Program-made: the position numbers and the translations under genes
In this document: one piece after another, positions 39,968-47,860 of the stretch
How the letters are laid out: every line of letters starts with the position of its first letter
Position numbering within the stretch: position 1 is the stretch's first letter
The notes under the pieces: generated by a model
What the model was told of the DNA's origin: nothing
The model's database searches: none
Seen by the model: the letters and a program-made list of their open reading frames with translations, nothing else
NCBI RefSeq assembly: GCF_000236685.1
Contig: NC_016633.1
Location: forward strand, 1,116,001-1,180,000
DNA length: 64,000 nucleotides
Direction: 5' to 3'
DNA from: Sphaerochaeta pleomorpha str. Grapes
Lineage (GTDB): Bacteria; Spirochaetota; Spirochaetia; Sphaerochaetales; Sphaerochaetaceae

Positions 39968-40603
39968 ATGGGACAACTGCTGTTGCAGATGCTGGGGGCA
40001 ACCCTTACCAGCCTAAAAATATTCGTATTGACGTTGGCTTTTGCCCTCCCATTGGGCATTCTCATCGCCAAGGGACGGATGTCCAAGAACCGATTGGTAT
40101 CAAATCTTGTCAACATCTACATCATGATTATGCGGGGAACCCCCCTGATTCTCCAGTTGATATTTGTATATTTCGCACCGTATTATGTGTTTGGAACCTC
40201 CTATGACCGGTTTACCGCGGTTATCGTAGGGTTTGTAATCAACTATGCGGCCTACTTTGCCGAAATCTACCGGGGAGGGATCCAAGCCATTCCCCGTGGT
40301 CAGTACGAGGCAAGCCATGTCCTTGGGTTTTCCAAGGCCCATACCTTTACCCATATCGTAGCACCCCAGGTAGTAAAAAGAATTATTCCCGCAATGGGCA
40401 ACGAGGTAATCACCTTGGTAAAAGATACAGCCCTTGCACAGACCATTGGGGTCGCGGAGCTTTTCAGGGTTGCCCAGAACGCCTCGGCCAGGCAATTTTC
40501 GACCATGCCCATTTTCATAGCCGGGGTTTTCTATTTCCTCATGAACGGAATCGTTTCAAGACTCTTCGATCGACTCGAGAGAAAACTCAATTACTACAAC
40601 TAG
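39968..40603 (+). CDS. Polar amino-acid ABC transporter permease
   Basis: A 211-residue HisM/GlnP-type permease with five membrane segments. Typical motifs: [84 protein letters not shown] (EAA loop and following). AGGAG lies 5-10 bp before the ATG. It is followed by the ATPase after 10 bp. Confidence 0.93.
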
Positions 40604-40613
40604 GAGGCCTGGG

Positions 40614-41372
40614 ATGGATATTATTTCGGTTGAAAACCTGGAAAAGAGTTTTGACGGACTTGGAGTACTCAAAGGCATTTCCTTCACATTGCAGAAAGGA
40701 GAGGTTCTTTCTATAATCGGTCCTTCGGGGAGCGGAAAAAGCACCATGCTACGGTGCATAAACCAACTCGAACCCATAGACGGTGGTTCGATTTCTGTCT
40801 GCGGGGACACGATGGTAACTACCGACGCACAGGGTAAGGTAGTATATGCAAACAAAGAGATTCTCAAAGCAGTGAGACTCCATTGCGGGATGGTTTTCCA
40901 GAATTTCAACCTGTTTCCCCATATGAATGTCCTGCATAACATTACCGAAGCACAGATTTTTGTTTTGAAAAAGACAAAGGAAGAAGCAGAGGCAAATGCC
41001 AGGCTCCTTTTGAAAAAAATGGGTCTTGAAGATAAGGAAAACGCCTATCCCTGCCAACTTTCAGGGGGCCAGCAACAGAGAGTGTCCATTGCCAGGGCCC
41101 TCGCCCTCAAGCCGGAAGTGCTCTGTTTCGATGAACCCACCAGTGCACTAGACCCGGAACTGACAGGGGAAATCCTCAATGTCATCAAAGCCCTTGCCCA
41201 GGAAAAAATGACCATGATCGTAGTAACCCACGAAATGACCTTTGCCCGGGATATCTCAGACAGGGTCATTTTCATGGATGACGGACAGATAGTCGAGGAA
41301 GGAAATCCCAATGAGTTGTTCAACAACCCCCAGAACCCAAGGACCAAGAAATTCCTGAATCGTTTCGAGTAG
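40614..41372 (+). CDS. Polar amino-acid ABC transporter ATP-binding protein
   Basis: A 252-residue ATPase with Walker [11 protein letters not shown]-loop [16 protein letters not shown], signature LSGGQQQR, Walker [19 protein letters not shown] and H-switch VTHEM. The GlnQ/HisP type is indicated by [13 protein letters not shown]. The start has AGGAGG 6 bp upstream. The end lies 10 bp from the end of the converging D-aminoacylase gene; no terminator was recognised between them. Confidence 0.94.
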
Positions 41373-41382
41373 GGAAACAGCA

Positions 41383-42960
41383 CTAAGCCTTGAGCAAAGA
41401 CCCTGCGCAAATACCTGTGGGATTACCCTCATACAGCGCAATTTTTCCATTCACCATTACCAGATGCAAGCCATCTGGTTTTGCTTTTGGTGTCGTTGCC
41501 GTGGAATTATCCCGTATGGTATTCGGATCGAACAAAACCAGGTCAGCCTTGAGCCCAAATGCTATCCGTCCCCTATCATAAAAGCCCAGCCGCGAGGCAG
41601 TCTCCCCGGTCATTTTGTGGATCATCTGTTCCAACGCCATCACGTGTTTCTGCCTCCAATAGCGATCGAGGAAATGTACGGCAGCCTGGAAGGACCTGGG
41701 ATGGCACTTTGTTCCCCCGTAGAGTGCATCGGTACCGAAACACATCAAGGGATGGGTCATGATTCGCTTCAGTGATTCCTGGCTTTGGGTGATATCAGTC
41801 ATGACAGCCGAGCCTTTTTCTTCTTTGAGCAAATCGAAAAACGCATCAAAAGGTCCTTGTTGCCGCTCGCTTGCAATATCAGCGAGGGTCATGCCTTCAT
41901 ATTGCGGATTGCTGTCAATGGTAATGGCTGTGATATTGTCCCAGCCACAGAGCTCATAGAGGCTATCCCAACCGACCGGGTCTCTCATCATGGCTTTTAT
42001 GGCTTCCCGTTCCCGGGGACTGTCCAGAAGTTTCTGCAAATCGTGCCTGTCCAACCGCAAATACTGTGGTGGCAACAAACTAAACAGACTGGTTGAACCA
42101 TATTCATACGGATATTGGTCAAATAATACGTCAAGGCCACTGAGTCTGGCATCTTCGATGAGCGTGAGCATCTGATCGACAAGGTGCTGGTTCTCTCTCC
42201 CAATTGCCTTGAGATGACTTACTTCGAGTCGGACTTTCGTGTATTTGGCAAGGTCGATCACTTCCTCCAGGGCTGAGAGTACATCGTCGCCCTCACATCG
42301 CATATGGACGGCAAACAACCGGTCGTATTTCTGCGTCACCTCAAGCAAGGCTAAAAGCTCGCCCCTGCTGGCAAACAGGCACGGAGCATAATAGAGCCCG
42401 CTGGAAAAACCGAGACATCCCTGTTCATAACTCTCTTCTAGCAGTCGGCACATGGTCTGCACTTCCACTGAATTTGCACTCCGATTGGGGTTTCCCTCAA
42501 TAGAACGGCACCTCAATGCGCTATGGGATTGCAAAAACGCCATGTTCGTCCCGCTGCCCTTTTTACCAAGCTCTGCACAATAGCTGTCGAAATCTTTCCA
42601 TCCAAAGGGAGCGTAATGACCAAGGACATCACGGGTATAGGCGTAGAGCACCTCATCGTTAGGCTTTGCAGGGAACACCCCGATCCCACAGTTTCCTGAA
42701 ACCTCAGTGGTAATACCCTGCCCGATCTTTGCTTCCATCGAAGGGTTTCTCAACACTTCCAGTTCACTATGGGCATGAATATCGATAAACCCAGGGCAGA
42801 GCACGAGGCCTGTTGCATCGATTACCTTACCAGAGGGTTCCCCTCCGTTATTGAATATTCTTTCTATTTTATCATTCTTGACTGCCACGTCACCCTGATA
42901 GGGTTCGCTTCCTGTTCCATCGATAATCGTGGCATTCTGAAAATACACATCAAAGGCCAT
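41383..42960 (-). CDS. N-acyl-D-amino-acid deacylase family amidohydrolase (D-aminoacylase)
   Basis: A 525-residue protein from the ATG at 42960 (AAGGAG 7 bp upstream). Family features: N-terminal ATIIDGTGSEPYQGDVAVKNDKIERI, metal-binding GFIDIHAHSE, GITTEVSGNCGIGVFP (bridging Cys region), the SSGLYYAPCLFA segment, VRLEVSHLKAIG (metal His), FGTDAL, and the C-terminal LGFYDRGRIAFGLKADLVLFDPNTI. It probably hydrolyses N-acyl-D-amino acids or related amides, e.g. from cell-wall material. Its start overlaps the end of the HTH/Fic-like gene by 11 bp, so the two are coupled and the latter may regulate it. Confidence 0.88.
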   Translation of the reverse strand: MAFDVYFQNATIIDGTGSEPYQGDVAVKNDKIERIFNNGGEPSGKVIDATGLVLCPGFIDIHAHSELEVLRNPSMEAKIGQGITTEVSGNCGIGVFPAKPNDEVLYAYTRDVLGHYAPFGWKDFDSYCAELGKKGSGTNMAFLQSHSALRCRSIEGNPNRSANSVEVQTMCRLLEESYEQGCLGFSSGLYYAPCLFASRGELLALLEVTQKYDRLFAVHMRCEGDDVLSALEEVIDLAKYTKVRLEVSHLKAIGRENQHLVDQMLTLIEDARLSGLDVLFDQYPYEYGSTSLFSLLPPQYLRLDRHDLQKLLDSPREREAIKAMMRDPVGWDSLYELCGWDNITAITIDSNPQYEGMTLADIASERQQGPFDAFFDLLKEEKGSAVMTDITQSQESLKRIMTHPLMCFGTDALYGGTKCHPRSFQAAVHFLDRYWRQKHVMALEQMIHKMTGETASRLGFYDRGRIAFGLKADLVLFDPNTIRDNSTATTPKAKPDGLHLVMVNGKIALYEGNPTGICAGSLLKA

Positions 42961-43912
42961 GTAACGTCTCCTTAGGTAACAATTTTGTAAGCTCATATAA
43001 TAAAGACTGTTCAAGCATTCTTACGACATTCTGGTAATTGCCCCGTTTGCGGGTAAGCATAAGGGAGGCCTTGAATTCATCCAGATGACTGGGATCGACC
43101 AATACCGGGGGATACCCGCCAAATAACAATTCCCCTCCGAGAACCAAGGTTGCAAATACACTGCAATAGTGCTCGAACGGACAGATACGAAGCAGCTCCC
43201 CGTACAAAAAAAGAGCACGGACCAAGGGATGGAGATGAATCCATTCGTTTTCGTATTGATTCATGAGGATTTCCATCTGGACTGAGACAGGAAACAACCG
43301 CAGATCATTGCCTTGGGGGTTGGCAGGGGGAATGGAAACTTTCCGGTACAGGGCAAGGTCTTCATCGTCGATCCCCTGCATCATGGTCCTGTAAAGAGTG
43401 GAAAGCCGTTGTTCATTGAACGTTGAGCTCTCTTTTTTCAGACCCTTGCAAGGCCCAAGACCTGTTTCCTGTACAAACCGCAGCAAGATTGAGCGGCAAT
43501 TCAAAGCCAAGAGCTGAGTTTCCATAGCGAGATCAGGAACGAACTCCCCTCCAAACAGCAGGGAAAGCTGATCACTCGTTACAGCTATGCCTTCACAGGC
43601 AAAACTACTCTCGATAAAACGTAAAATAAGTTTTTTATAATCGCCGAGGAAAGTTGTCTCGTTGCCTTTCATGCAAGAGAGCTGTTTCTGCAGAGTATCA
43701 AGTCGAGAAAGATCGAGAGACCCAAACCGAAGTTCGAAGTTTTTCAAGTGCCTCAGCTGACGACCATCCCCAGGCTTTAAGGAAGTCAGAGGTATGTTCC
43801 AGGCCCATCCGGAACGGACGACACCTTCGATACGTCCTTCTGAGCAAAGGATACGTACCCTTCGCTCGGAAATATCCCATTTTTGAGCTGCCTGCCTAAC
43901 ACTCATGAACAT
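42950..43912 (-). CDS. HTH protein with degenerate (catalytically dead) Fic domain
   Basis: A 320-residue protein. Residues 4-42 look like a MerR/excisionase-type winged HTH (VRQAAQKWDISERRVRILCSEGRI). The rest follows the Fic fold: ESSFACEGIAVTSDQLSLLFGG (102-122) matches the inhibitory S/T-x3-E-G motif; LHPLVRALFLYGELLRI leads into the catalytic loop. C244-PFEH-YCSV stands where active Fic proteins have HPFxxGNGR, so His is Cys and G-N-G-R is Y-C-S-V. GGYPPVLVDPSHLDEFKASL and GNYQNVVRMLEQSL match the Fic C-terminal helices. AMP transfer should be impossible. It is likely a transcription factor. First gene of the unit, overlapping the D-aminoacylase start. Confidence 0.78.
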   Translation of the reverse strand: MFMSVRQAAQKWDISERRVRILCSEGRIEGVVRSGWAWNIPLTSLKPGDGRQLRHLKNFELRFGSLDLSRLDTLQKQLSCMKGNETTFLGDYKKLILRFIESSFACEGIAVTSDQLSLLFGGEFVPDLAMETQLLALNCRSILLRFVQETGLGPCKGLKKESSTFNEQRLSTLYRTMMQGIDDEDLALYRKVSIPPANPQGNDLRLFPVSVQMEILMNQYENEWIHLHPLVRALFLYGELLRICPFEHYCSVFATLVLGGELLFGGYPPVLVDPSHLDEFKASLMLTRKRGNYQNVVRMLEQSLLYELTKLLPKETLHGL

Positions 43913-44077
43913 CTTACGTTACTACCTTAAATATACTATTCCTATGTAGGAGTAATACCATGGATTCAGCCCAATAGCAATATATTCCATTTTTATCAGG
44001 GCTTTACCTTGGGAGGAAATATCGGAATAATGGATGGGGAAGGGAACTGCCTTCCAATTTCTTTGGGAGGGAACTAT

Positions 44078-45361
44078 ATGGATCAGTACGATGTCATTAT
44101 CGTGGGGAGCGGACCTGCAGGGATGGGAGCAGCCTTCACGATTGCTGCACAGAAACCAAACATAAAAATATTGATATTGGATCGGGAAAAATTCTCTACC
44201 GGTGGAATGCGTAATGACTGCAAGATGAATTTCACCTTTCCTATTGGCTTTCCTGTCGAGTATTGGACAGAAGGGGTTGCAAACAGATATCTCGAACAGG
44301 TAGTGGATTTTCTGAAGCCTGACTTTCTCAACCAGACAAATATCGAAACCTATCAGAAACGAGCAGAGCGCCTCGGGTGCAGCCTGCTTCAGATTCGCCA
44401 GACCCATCTAGGCACCGACGGTGGTTTGGCCTTGATCAAGAAATTGCTTGCCCAGCTGGCCGACCTTGGTGTTGACCTTGCCCTCGGAGAAGCAATGGAG
44501 CAAGTCAACCCTGCAGAAAAATCCATCACTACCGAAAAACGGGAAATCGGGTACAAAGCCCTTCTCGTAGCCCCAGGTAGAAAAGGATTCCACTTCCTGC
44601 AGGATGTAATGTCGACCCTTTCGGTCCCCTTTGTAGACAATATCGTCGATATCGGGATTCGTTTGGAAACAAGAATCGAACACTATCCCATTGTCAAAGA
44701 CTATTATGACCCAAAATTCTATTTTCCTGAAAAAGTCAGGACTTTCTGCACCAATAGCGGTAATGCCCACGTGGTGAAAGAACGCTATGCAACAAGCAGG
44801 GGGGACCAGTGGCTCTCTGTCAACGGACATGCCTTTGCCCCAGATTTCAGGCATGACAATGGCCTGGTAAATTTCGCTATTCTCAAAACGGTACGGTTTA
44901 CGGCCCCACTTGCCAGCGGGCAGGCGTTTGCAGAGAATCTCGGACTGCAAGCCTCTTTGATGGGTGGGGGGAAACCGCTTATGCAACGGGTCGGCGATTT
45001 CCGCCTTGGCTCACGAAGCAGAGAAGAAAGCTTCAGCAAGGATCTCTATGATTTCGAACCTTCCCTGCGTGACTGCTGCCCTGGCGACATATCTTTGGCA
45101 ATGCCGGCAAAAATTCTCAGGGCAATCTGGAAAGCCATGAAGAACCTCGATACCATCGTGCCGGGAGTCCTGCATCCTTCCACTATCATGTACTACCCTG
45201 AGATCAAGCTATATGCCAACAAACCGACCTATCTTGACGAACACTTCAAGGTTCACGAAGCGGTATGGTTCGCAGGCGACGGGGCGGGGACCAGCCGCGG
45301 CATAACCGGGGCCTGGGCCAGCGGGATCCGTGCGGCCGAAGGGATACTCGAAACCTTATAA
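44078..45361 (+). CDS. FAD-dependent dehydrogenase (COG2509-like)
   Basis: A 427-residue protein from the ATG at 44078 (GGGAGGG 6 bp upstream). It begins MDQYDVIIVGSGPAGMGAAFTIA, an FAD-binding GxGxxG fold. An in-frame ATG at 44030, also with GGGAGG, would add 16 residues. FSTGGMRNDCKMNF is characteristic of the uncharacterised FAD-dependent dehydrogenase group, and the C-terminal FAD contact is VWFAGDGAGTSRGITGAWASGIRAAEGI. Substrate and electron acceptor are unknown. It is divergent from the HTH/Fic-like gene; its 3' end overlaps the hydrolase gene by 6 bp. Confidence 0.85.
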   Translation: MDQYDVIIVGSGPAGMGAAFTIAAQKPNIKILILDREKFSTGGMRNDCKMNFTFPIGFPVEYWTEGVANRYLEQVVDFLKPDFLNQTNIETYQKRAERLGCSLLQIRQTHLGTDGGLALIKKLLAQLADLGVDLALGEAMEQVNPAEKSITTEKREIGYKALLVAPGRKGFHFLQDVMSTLSVPFVDNIVDIGIRLETRIEHYPIVKDYYDPKFYFPEKVRTFCTNSGNAHVVKERYATSRGDQWLSVNGHAFAPDFRHDNGLVNFAILKTVRFTAPLASGQAFAENLGLQASLMGGGKPLMQRVGDFRLGSRSREESFSKDLYDFEPSLRDCCPGDISLAMPAKILRAIWKAMKNLDTIVPGVLHPSTIMYYPEIKLYANKPTYLDEHFKVHEAVWFAGDGAGTSRGITGAWASGIRAAEGILETL

Positions 45362-46156
45362 GGTAAAATCAAACCGGTTGTTCAACCAAGTGGTACAAAG
45401 CCCCACCCATTGCTGACAGGCTGTGTTGGGTGTCCCTACCTCTTGGTTGCACATTGAAAGGCCATGGACTCCTTCACTGAACAAGTGTAGCTCAAAAGGG
45501 ACATTTTGGCGCTGCAAGGCCGAGGCAAGCTGAAGACTGTTTTCTACCGGCACAGAGGCATCGGTGACCGTATGCCAGATAAAAGAAGGAACAGTGGTTG
45601 ACGACACCTGGTTCTCCAGGCAAAACAACGCTCGGTCGGCTTCAAGTTTTCCACTCACCCAGTCCGCACTTTCCTGATGACAAAACTCACCGGTAGAAAT
45701 TACCGGGTAGCAAAGCACAGCGGCATCGGGTCGGTTCAATCCGTCCTTTGTATCAAAAACCGCTTTCAAACGAGGGTGGTCATGCAAAATAGCCAAAGAG
45801 GCTGCAACATGACCCCCTGCACTGAATCCCATGATGGCAATATGATAGGGATCACACATCCAAGGAACCGAATGCTCCCGTATCTTGATGATTGCATCGC
45901 TTGCCTCAATCAAAGGATTGAGGTTGGAAGCCTCGTCTCGCACAGAATAATCGAGAATGAACACATTATATCCCAGAGATAGAAAATATAAGGCAACGGG
46001 ATCACGTTCCCGTTCGCTTCTGAACCGATAGGCTCCGCCTGGGCAAATGACTATCGAAGGACGAATATTGCGAATTCCTCCGTCCTGGGTGAACGATTGA
46101 AGATATCCTGTCAAGGGAACCTGATTTTTTCCTACTGCCGTCTGTATGATTTTCAT
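45356..46156 (-). CDS. Alpha/beta hydrolase (esterase, acetylxylan-esterase-like)
   Basis: A 266-residue protein. The oxyanion segment VICPGGAYRFRSERERDPVALYF, nucleophile elbow GFSAGGHVAAS (Ser), acid region TVTDASVPVENS (Asp) and FSEGVHGLSM (His) form a complete catalytic triad. BD-FAE/Axe-type bacterial esterases share this layout. There is no signal peptide, so it is cytosolic. Its substrate may be an acylated sugar or small ester; context does not decide. Confidence 0.88.
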   Translation of the reverse strand: MKIIQTAVGKNQVPLTGYLQSFTQDGGIRNIRPSIVICPGGAYRFRSERERDPVALYFLSLGYNVFILDYSVRDEASNLNPLIEASDAIIKIREHSVPWMCDPYHIAIMGFSAGGHVAASLAILHDHPRLKAVFDTKDGLNRPDAAVLCYPVISTGEFCHQESADWVSGKLEADRALFCLENQVSSTTVPSFIWHTVTDASVPVENSLQLASALQRQNVPFELHLFSEGVHGLSMCNQEVGTPNTACQQWVGLCTTWLNNRFDFTL

Positions 46157-46192: not shown

Positions 46193-47860
46193 TCAGGAAA
46201 TTGTTTTTTGGTTATCCCTGATCCAAGAAACCAATTGCTCATAGGGAAGCGCTTTTGCATAATAAAAACCCTGGAGATAATTGCAACCTATTGCATGCAG
46301 GTATTCGATTTTTTCCATAGTATCGACACCTTCTGCTACAACCTTGAGACCAAGGTCCTGGCAAAGCTCTACAAGCCCCTTGATCATGCAGCGGGTATGT
46401 TCTGAGAACGGTATTTTGTCGATAAACATTTTGTCAATCTTGATACTATCGGCCGGAATATTTTCCAGATAGGCAAAGGAAGACAACCCGGTCCCGAAAT
46501 CATCGATTGACAGTTTGCATCCGAGTTCTTTCAGCTTGAAGAGATTTCCCAAAGCTTGCTCAGGAGAGTTCATAATAGCGGTTTCGGTAACCTCAAAAAT
46601 CAAATTACCCGGTGTTATTTCCTTTTCCTGAAGCAATGACTGAACAAAAGAAACCAACTTTGGATTCTCAAGGGTATTTGCAGACAGATTGATAGAGCAA
46701 TGCAGATTCGGAAAAATCAGATTGAGGGTTTGTAGATGTTTAAGAGCCTCTTCCAAAACCCAGTTCTGCACGATTTCTATATACGGGGTGTTTTCCACCA
46801 AGGGAATAAAAAAGGCAGGGGAGAGAGAACCAAAAACAGGGCTATTCCATCTGAGCAAAGCTTCCACCCCGACGATTGAATCTGAAGCAGTGGTTACTAT
46901 CGGCTGGAAAGCCAACGTACATTGATTCTCCTGTATCGCCAGGGGAACGCTTCCGATGATAGCCAAGTTACGTTTCGAAATCTTTTCAAACCCATCTTGG
47001 AAATGCATGTAGAACGTTTTCTCCTGGTAGGCTGCTATAGAGGCAATCTGTGCCTGGTTGAGCAATTCAATAGGATCCAACCCTTCAATCGTATGGGTTG
47101 CTGACCCCATATGGATATCCAGATAATAGGGGATGGAATCTATGACTATTGGAAATGCGTTAAATTGCAGGCTTTTCCGTTCTATTTCTTCATTACTCGG
47201 GAATTCCCCTACATAAAAATAGGAGAGGGTTTCCCTGAAAATCTGGAACCCAACAAGATTCTTATTACTCTTCTGTTGTAAAATCGCCTTTGAGGTTGCA
47301 TAGATGCATTTATCTGCCACTTCTTTCCCGAAGGTAGATAAAATACTGTCGTAATTGCTTACCTGAAAAACCCCGAGACAGCAAAGCTCTTCTCCCTTAT
47401 GGGTTGCAGACAAGGAGTCGAGCGCTGCAATCAGGGCAATCTGGTTATCCATTCCTGTGTCTGCATTATGGGTGTCTGACCACCTTTTTAAAGCAAAATG
47501 CTTTTTGAGATACAAGGAAATACACCCTTGCAACAATCCTATGGCGATAAAAATGCAACATCGACAAATCCAGTTCGCCGATGTCTGCATACTACCGTTG
47601 GCAACATCCAAAGGCATGAGGGGACCAAGAAGAAACCCTCCTCCCAAAGCTGCAAAAAAACCACCCCATACATCAAAGGCAAAGGCAGCAAGGAGAATGG
47701 GAATATACATGGTATGGGAAAAAACGTAGGTCAATCCACCGGTAACAAAAACCAGCCAGGTAGAAAAAACAATAAGGAGGCAAATGAGCAAAAGCTGCCA
47801 GAAAACCATGGATGCAGTCCGGTGTAATACGAGGCTTTCCAAAAAATCTTTATGCTTCAC
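46193..47860 (-). CDS. Membrane EAL-domain cyclic-di-GMP phosphodiesterase with degenerate GGDEF
   Basis: A 555-residue protein. Several N-terminal membrane helices (~17-120, WQLLLICLLIVFSTWLVFVTGGLTYVF and following) resemble a small-ligand sensing membrane domain. A middle region (~140-300) resembles a GGDEF fold but reads FRETLSYFYVGEF where RxGGDEF would be. The C-terminal EAL domain keeps catalytic residues: VGVEALLRW, SINLSA, FEVTETA, SIDDFGTGLSSFAYL, IKIDKMFID and KVVAEGV. It should hydrolyse cyclic-di-GMP but not make it. It is monocistronic. Confidence 0.87.
   Translation of the reverse strand: MKHKDFLESLVLHRTASMVFWQLLLICLLIVFSTWLVFVTGGLTYVFSHTMYIPILLAAFAFDVWGGFFAALGGGFLLGPLMPLDVANGSMQTSANWICRCCIFIAIGLLQGCISLYLKKHFALKRWSDTHNADTGMDNQIALIAALDSLSATHKGEELCCLGVFQVSNYDSILSTFGKEVADKCIYATSKAILQQKSNKNLVGFQIFRETLSYFYVGEFPSNEEIERKSLQFNAFPIVIDSIPYYLDIHMGSATHTIEGLDPIELLNQAQIASIAAYQEKTFYMHFQDGFEKISKRNLAIIGSVPLAIQENQCTLAFQPIVTTASDSIVGVEALLRWNSPVFGSLSPAFFIPLVENTPYIEIVQNWVLEEALKHLQTLNLIFPNLHCSINLSANTLENPKLVSFVQSLLQEKEITPGNLIFEVTETAIMNSPEQALGNLFKLKELGCKLSIDDFGTGLSSFAYLENIPADSIKIDKMFIDKIPFSEHTRCMIKGLVELCQDLGLKVVAEGVDTMEKIEYLHAIGCNYLQGFYYAKALPYEQLVSWIRDNQKTIS

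What the first reader, a model, noticed from the sequence alone, without database searches (positions are those of the whole stretch)
42950..43912. DNA-binding protein built on a catalytically dead Fic fold, coupled to a D-aminoacylase
Seen: an N-terminal HTH, an intact inhibitory motif (S103-x3-E107-G), Fic-like helices, but CPFEHYCSV in place of HPFxxGNGR: all key residues of the AMP-transfer loop are replaced. The gene overlaps the D-aminoacylase start by 11 bp and is divergent from an FAD dehydrogenase. Inference: the fold was reused as a ligand sensor, perhaps for a nucleotide or for a D-amino-acid compound.
Basis: partly seen in the sequence, partly recalled or inferred. Interest (0 to 1): 0.68.

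Follow-up and report, generated by a model that had tools for sequence, protein, structure and literature searches.

The report
Dead-Fic transcription regulator beside a D-aminoacylase
A gene in a Sphaerochaeta-like spirochaete encodes a DNA-binding protein whose second half is a Fic enzyme fold stripped of its catalytic residues, apparently reused as a regulator that switches itself and a neighbouring amidohydrolase gene, and it belongs to a whole clade of such proteins.

Summary
Window 42950-43912 (-) encodes a 320-aa protein: an N-terminal HTH and a Fic fold (AlphaFold pLDDT 91; nearest solved structures all Fic, Z 24) with CPFEHYCSV in place of HPFxxGNGR. This is no recent mutation: 90 HTH-pseudoFic rows from one spirochaete family form one clade (100/100) apart from 39 catalytic HTH-Fic rows; none has HPFxxGNGR, and dN/dS is about 0.08. 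An amidohydrolase of the D-aminoacylase family lies directly downstream in 89 of the 101 family genomes that have one, and in 40 of 46 named loci. New here: a promoter operator, YCC-N6-GGR (TCCTACATAGGA at 43940-43951), upstream of 57 of 81 pseudoFic genes (shuffles 2.7), usually exactly inside the 17-bp spacer between -35 and -10. It stays when the adjacent amidohydrolase is lost (8 of 11) and is absent where pseudoFic is lost (0 of 5). Catalytic HTH-Fics carry the half-site (TTCCGA in 35 of 36). Best reading: an autoregulatory one-component repressor exapted from a self-regulating HTH-Fic enzyme. Ligand sensing is inferred; the ligand and the amidohydrolase's substrate are unknown. The 'intact inhibitory motif' is true of this protein, not of the clade.

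The parts
42950..43912 (-). HTH-pseudoFic protein, 320 aa (HTH about residues 1-45, conserved linker 46-64, dead Fic domain about 64-318)
43157..43183 (-). Degenerate catalytic loop CPFEHYCSV (residues 244-252) in place of HPFxxGNGR
43589..43606 (-). Inhibitory-helix motif SFACEG (residues 103-108); matches [S/T]xxxE[G/N] here, drifts in the clade
43939..43951 (-). Putative operator TCCTACATAGGAA (YCC-N6-GGR inverted repeat), directly after the -10 element
43952..43980 (-). Putative sigma70-type promoter TTGCTA-17 bp-TATTAC (conserved in the genus as TTGcac-17-TATTAC)
   Evidence: TTG 30 bases before CC in 15 of 57 site-bearing upstreams
41383..42960 (-). Amidohydrolase of the D-aminoacylase family (525 aa), overlaps the pseudoFic gene by 11 bp
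44078..45361 (+). Divergent FAD-dependent oxidoreductase (427 aa); 72-85% identical in relatives, divergent neighbour in 24 of 46 named loci
40614..41372 (+). Convergent polar-amino-acid ABC transporter ATPase (context only)
39968..40603 (+). Convergent polar-amino-acid ABC transporter permease (context only)

Best explanation
The protein is an autoregulatory one-component transcription regulator, most likely a repressor. A dimer binds the inverted repeat YCC-N6-GGR in its own promoter through the N-terminal HTH (inferred from conservation), blocking RNA polymerase, because the repeat sits in the -35/-10 spacer in most relatives and just downstream of -10 in this genus. It thereby controls itself and the overlapping amidohydrolase gene, and perhaps the divergent FAD oxidoreductase. 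The C-terminal domain is a true Fic fold that lost its catalytic loop once, in the common ancestor of the clade, and now works without catalysis as a dimerisation and/or ligand-sensing domain (inferred); release by a compound linked to the amidohydrolase or oxidoreductase pathway is the likeliest trigger. It arose from a self-regulated, catalytic HTH-Fic protein, whose relatives still carry the same DNA half-site. Shown by computation: fold, loss of motif, single clade, purifying selection, gene coupling, conserved promoter site. Inferred: DNA binding, repression, ligand, target genes.
For: Fic fold: AlphaFold pLDDT 91.3, pTM 0.87; Foldseek rows all Fic, best E 9e-9; VIA Z 24.0, rmsd 3.5, 234 aligned, to C. 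elegans Fic-1; clade profile to FICD E 4.8e-14. Dead loop: of 90 pseudoFic rows, catalytic His in 2, R1 in 4, R2 in 0. One clade: 90 pseudo against 39 intact rows, one split, 100/100. Purifying selection: dN/dS 0.03-0.20, median 0.08 over 41 pair rows, duplicates included. Coupling: 89 of 101 family genomes with the amidohydrolase; 40 of 46 named loci, stop-to-start -13 to +98 nt as projected. Operator: CCNANNWNGG in 57 of 81 distinct pseudoFic upstreams against 2.7 in shuffles (max 6) and 3.0 at random places in the same loci (max 8); TTG exactly 11 bases upstream in 33 of 57 and TAnnn[TA] exactly 2 bases after GG in 44 of 57. Hold-out: 6 of 9 new upstreams. Dependence: absent in 5 of 5 genomes that keep FAD-amidohydrolase but lack pseudoFic; kept in 8 of 11 with pseudoFic but no adjacent amidohydrolase. 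Ancestry of the site: TTCCGA in 35 of 36 catalytic HTH-Fic upstreams, shuffles 2.5. Precedent: CccR, a Fic-HTH protein that represses its own promoter (PMC9755527).
Against: No experiment on any member. 24 of 81 upstreams lack the pattern, among them L034, L035 and L037 within the genus, which have near-matches. The pattern was chosen after looking at the sequences; the hold-out is small. Eleven genomes keep pseudoFic with no adjacent amidohydrolase, and in some (L147-L150, L156) neither neighbour remains, so amidohydrolase control cannot be the whole function. Five genomes run the FAD-amidohydrolase pair without it. No sign of a wider regulon: CCWANNTAGGAA gives 25 hits in the genome against 52 for the reversed control. 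Nothing here shows that the Fic pocket binds anything.
Confidence: 0.7

Rival explanations
1. Autorepressor in which the dead Fic domain is only a dimerisation scaffold, with no ligand; the system is a constant feedback loop that fixes the level of the amidohydrolase.
For: Operator and autoregulatory geometry are explained without a ligand. The Fic domain drifts faster than the HTH in most pairs. In 10 of 11 genomes of two genera the 14-mer operator occurs once, at its own promoter.
Against: The Fic part is still under purifying selection and has acquired clade-specific conserved residues (R54, K57, N58, R62, G64, Q219, W224, R242, E279, R290-G-N292), more than a bare scaffold needs.
Confidence: 0.3
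2. The Fic domain has a different, undiscovered catalytic activity, as the motif-less Fido protein AvrB turned out to have (rhamnosyltransferase).
For: AvrB has the Fic fold without the motif (PMC2686095, passages) and is named as a glycosyltransferase in PMC12974487 (passages). Pro245 (89 of 90) and Phe246 (76 of 90) of the loop stay conserved.
Against: The catalytic loop is not conserved in any new form within the clade: the former His position is R/Q/K/E/C, the D/E position K/R/E/S, unlike an active site.
Confidence: 0.08
3. The protein is a non-catalytic partner or decoy of true Fic proteins (antitoxin-like), acting through hetero-dimers or the shared half-site.
For: The half-site is shared with catalytic HTH-Fics; G010, G012, G320, G334 and G340 hold both kinds.
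Against: The window's genome has no other full-length HTH-Fic relative, only two Fic proteins found by the Fic family model; most family genomes listed have a pseudoFic and no second full-length relative.
Confidence: 0.07
4. A decaying pseudogene or an annotation artefact.
For: Not detected by Pfam Fic or NCBIfam when searched alone.
Against: Open frame in the genus, dN/dS about 0.08, single old clade, confident model.
Confidence: 0.01

Closest known systems
CccR (Yersinia pseudotuberculosis; Fic-HTH toxin and transcription factor; PMC9755527, abstract and passages seen)
   Same: Fic domain and HTH in one chain; represses its own promoter through an inverted repeat near -35/-10.
   Different: CccR keeps its catalytic His (H192) and AMPylates FtsZ; its HTH is C-terminal; it is a secreted effector. 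The present protein has no catalytic motif, an N-terminal HTH and metabolic neighbours.
Catalytic HTH-Fic proteins of Bacillota and Spirochaetota (e.g. L076, L079-L093, L157-L163)
   Same: Same N-terminal HTH, same order of domains, same TTCCGA half-site upstream.
   Different: They keep SNAIEGN and HPFIDGNGR; none of the 8 in the family lies beside the amidohydrolase.
Human FICD / C. elegans Fic-1
   Same: Nearest solved structures to the C-terminal domain.
   Different: Active AMPylase and deAMPylase, no HTH (recalled, and PMC12974487 passages for FICD).
AvrB (Fido superfamily; PMC2686095, PMC12974487, passages seen)
   Same: Fic fold without the Fic motif.
   Different: An effector with a transferase activity; no HTH.
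DUF1612 (remote Fic-like N-terminus plus winged helix, described in PMC2686095 section 7)
   Same: Remote Fic-like domain joined to a DNA-binding domain.
   Different: C-terminal winged helix; not found by Pfam in these proteins.

Membership tests
Fic / Fido superfamily | Fic fold | tested here: met
Fic / Fido superfamily | Catalytic motif HPFx[D/E]GN[G/K]R | tested here: not met
   CPFEHYCSV; absent from all 90 pseudoFic rows
Fic / Fido superfamily | Inhibitory motif [S/T]xxxE[G/N] | tested here: inconclusive
   Present in this protein (SFACEG), not conserved in the clade (E 30, D 42 of 90); its partner R2 is gone
Fic / Fido superfamily | Transfer of AMP or a related group | not testable with these tools
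   needs enzymology
HTH-Fic autoregulators (CccR-like) | DNA-binding HTH and Fic domain in one chain | tested here: met
   HTH_17 in 22 of 42 members, Fic in 26 of 42; model elements H5-12, H16-24 and two strands. For the window protein alone HTH_17 is below cut-off
HTH-Fic autoregulators (CccR-like) | Inverted repeat in its own promoter | tested here: met
   57 of 81 upstreams, shuffles 2.7; window 43940-43951
HTH-Fic autoregulators (CccR-like) | Binding to that promoter and repression | not testable with these tools
   needs EMSA and a reporter
HTH-Fic autoregulators (CccR-like) | Catalytic Fic domain | tested here: not met
D-aminoacylase family (partner gene) | Homology over both halves of the enzyme to 1m7j | tested here: met
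   E 4.8e-65; residues 3-292 and 351-523 aligned
D-aminoacylase family (partner gene) | Acts on N-acyl-D-amino acids | not testable with these tools
   N-acyl-D-glutamate deacylase 3gip and PpOngB score about as well

The most novel reading that the evidence does not exclude
A toxin-like, self-regulating HTH-Fic enzyme was converted once, in the ancestor of one spirochaete family, into a metabolite-sensing transcription factor: the nucleotide pocket of the Fic fold now binds a compound of N-acyl-amino-acid or amino-sugar metabolism and switches the promoter of its amidohydrolase. It would be a natural case of a post-translational modifier turned one-component sensor, with the original operator still readable.
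Probability: 0.42. Interest if true: 0.75.

Novelty: new variant of a known kind. Interest (0 to 1): 0.6.

Why it matters
Fic proteins are studied as enzymes and toxins. A single-origin, family-wide clade in which the fold has lost catalysis but kept its HTH and its promoter site makes the step from modifying enzyme to gene regulator directly testable, with living catalytic relatives for comparison. It also names a concrete operator for HTH-Fic proteins in general (TTCCGA half-sites), which predicts autoregulation in many Bacillota.

Tried and rejected
Fusion of pseudoFic to amidohydrolase: L072 looked like an 806-aa fusion, but the joint is a run of N: assembly gap, rejected.

Wider regulon in the window's genome: CCWANNTAGGAA, 25 hits against 52 control hits, so no enrichment. 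Two perfect palindromes elsewhere were looked at: one upstream of a patatin-like gene (L244), one inside the 3' end of an rpiR gene before a D-aminopeptidase (L248). The latter was tempting, but of 10 genus loci only 3 show a similar site and it lies in coding sequence: rejected.

pseudoFic outside the family: nine of the other hits from other families of the class, fetched and read, all have intact HPFxxGNGR. Other partial hits of that call were not read.

Defence-system link: PADLOC gives only E 0.022: not followed.

Literature: (open-access PMC only) found no paper on a non-catalytic HTH-Fic regulator; subscription journals are not covered. PMC12409994 was opened for one passage (a reference) only; other listed papers were seen in the listing alone.

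Rows dropped before counts: L094 (84 aa) and L111 (180 aa, cut) left out of the tree and column counts; identical upstreams removed before operator counts (81 and 36 kept). The dN/dS list still holds duplicate rows of the same species from two collections. Hold-out: 20 fetched; the start was found in 17, of which 8 repeat species already seen (7 flagged, L212 by its contig length equal to that of L072); 9 remained, 6 with a site (one of these at -90 rather than near -24). Start not found: L208, L211 (a repeat of L087), L220. The organism's name was not established; genus Sphaerochaeta is inferred from named relatives.

Full report
Observation. The protein has 320 aa on the minus strand of 42950-43912. 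The amidohydrolase start overlaps its stop by 11 bp; the FAD oxidoreductase is divergent, with its likely ATG at 44078 rather than the mechanical TTG at 44009.

Is it a Fic fold? By sequence alone the protein is nearly invisible: no Pfam Fic hit, no NCBIfam hit, phmmer to FICD only E 0.55, though that alignment places CPFEHYCSV on the Fic motif. With relatives it is clear: the A1 profile finds FICD at 4.8e-14, 26 of 42 members match Pfam Fic, and the AlphaFold model (42 pseudoFic rows, none catalytic) has pLDDT 91.3 and pTM 0.87. Every Foldseek row shown is a Fic protein (best E 9e-9). VIA gives Z 24.0, rmsd 3.5 over 234 residues to Fic-1, well above the level at which helical bundles match by chance according to that tool's note. 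The structural matches cover model residues of roughly 58-318; the HTH was not tested by fold search, but it is strongly conserved (R17, R18, R20, C23 in 99-100% of pseudoFic rows) and matches HTH_17 in 22 of 42 members.

Recent mutation or clade? Of 80 named loci fetched with the profile, 46 are pseudoFic and 32 are intact HTH-Fics; two short rows were set aside. With further family genomes, 90 pseudoFic and 39 intact rows, including some species twice from two collections, split on one branch with 100/100 support and one change. No pseudoFic row has the Fic motif: His in 2 of 90, R1 in 4, R2 in 0; Pro245 in 89. The other conserved positions changed too: residues fixed in catalytic HTH-Fics (T100, N109, H139, H237, N259, Y280, Y281) are replaced, and new ones are fixed (R54, R62, G64, Q219, W224, R242, E279, G291, N292). 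dN/dS lies at 0.03-0.20, median 0.08, over 41 pair rows. The nine hits from outside the family that I read are all intact Fic. So catalysis was lost once, and the product is kept by selection.

Coupling. In 46 named loci the amidohydrolase follows directly in 40; the six without it are L047, L054, L055, L061, L065 and L078. The FAD gene is the divergent neighbour in 24 of 46. In 119 family genomes I took the 112 strongest listed matches: 89 adjacent to the amidohydrolase, 3 at contig ends (G014, G191, G362), 11 pseudoFic without it nearby, 8 intact HTH-Fics (G012, G010, G027, G238, G336, G320, G334, G340) and 1 fragment not classified. Not all of the 89 were read letter by letter: those read were all pseudoFic. 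Of 101 genomes with the amidohydrolase (E<=1e-60), 12 have it apart from any listed pseudoFic: three by contig ends (G349, G191, G362), five with FAD and amidohydrolase divergent and no gene between (L166-L170), G030 with the two on different contigs, and three with a more distant enzyme in another setting (L171-L173). No other gene offers a common partner: with the amidohydrolase lost, some loci keep the FAD gene (L146, L151, L153, L154, L155), others keep neither (L147-L150, L156).

Operator. Reading the upstream sequences showed a near-palindrome. CCNANNWNGG occurs within 100 bp upstream in 57 of 81 distinct pseudoFic genes, against 2.7 (max 6) in dinucleotide shuffles and 3.0 (max 8) at random places in the same loci. 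Its place is fixed: CC at -24 or -25 in 32 of the 57; TTG exactly 11 bases before CC in 33 of 57; TAnnn[TA] exactly 2 bases after GG in 44 of 57. This is a -35/-10 pair with a 17-bp spacer and the repeat inside it. The -10 then lies so near the ATG that the message would have little or no leader. In the window's genus the repeat lies just after -10 (TTG 30 bases before CC in 15 of 57). The pattern was made after seeing the data; in new upstreams it is in 6 of 9. Where pseudoFic is lost but the FAD and amidohydrolase pair stays, the repeat is missing in 5 of 5; where the adjacent amidohydrolase is lost but pseudoFic stays, it is present in 8 of 11 (L146-L150, L152, L153, L155; not L151, L154, L156). 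So the site goes with pseudoFic, not with its neighbours. In 11 genomes of two genera CCGARYTCGGAATA occurs once in 10 and twice in one, each genome having it at its pseudoFic promoter; the second copy in G332 lies in a coding frame. Catalytic HTH-Fic genes have TTCCGA upstream in 35 of 36 (shuffles 2.5) and TTCCGATA in 27 of 36. The binding site therefore seems older than the loss of catalysis.

Mechanism. Taken together these results point to a local autoregulator, most simply a repressor, given the position of the site. The reading is supported by CccR, a Fic-HTH protein that represses itself through inverted repeats near -35/-10 (PMC9755527, abstract and passages), and by the suggestion in PMC2686095 (section 7) that HTH domains joined to Fic may regulate expression. 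What the Fic domain does is open: sensor, scaffold, or an unknown activity. I favour a sensor or combined sensor and dimer domain because new residues became fixed, but the evidence is indirect. The compound could come from the amidohydrolase pathway. Its substrate is not fixed by homology: D-aminoacylase 1m7j (4.8e-65), N-acyl-D-glutamate deacylase 3gip (2.4e-62), PpOngB (1.6e-62).

Limits. Everything is computational. The regulon beyond the promoter itself is not shown. Coordinates of the AlphaFold model could not be inspected residue by residue here, so no pocket was mapped.

Noticed in passing
L157, L163 (G012, G010): Catalytic HTH-Fic genes in Sphaerochaeta are followed on the same strand by a protein that reads like an ADP-ribosylglycohydrolase (name from reading, no family search); could be a Fic and reversal-enzyme pair.
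   Followed up: no
L161 (G340): An intact HTH-Fic gene is followed by a gene reading like a metallophosphoesterase (name from reading), another possible reversal enzyme.
   Followed up: no
L160, L161, L162 upstream regions: Two or three TATTCCGATA-like half-sites stand in a row upstream of catalytic HTH-Fic genes, suggesting cooperative autoregulation.
   Followed up: partly
Upstreams with CC at -24/-25 (e.g. L058, L187): The -10 element ends so close to the start codon that leaderless messages are expected in much of the family.
   Followed up: partly
L072, about 8800: Apparent pseudoFic-amidohydrolase fusion is caused by a run of N in the assembly.
   Followed up: yes
L244 about 1500 (own genome, C1:3024862): Perfect palindrome TTCCTACTTAGGAA upstream of a patatin-like gene resembles the window operator; may be chance.
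   Followed up: partly
L166-L170: Two genera keep the divergent FAD-amidohydrolase pair without pseudoFic; a GTATACACAATC-like stretch recurs in this intergenic region and may be another promoter or regulator site.
   Followed up: no
window 45356-46156 and 46193-47860: BD-FAE-like esterase and a weak-GGDEF/EAL protein next to the locus; the esterase is conserved beside it in much of the genus.
   Followed up: no
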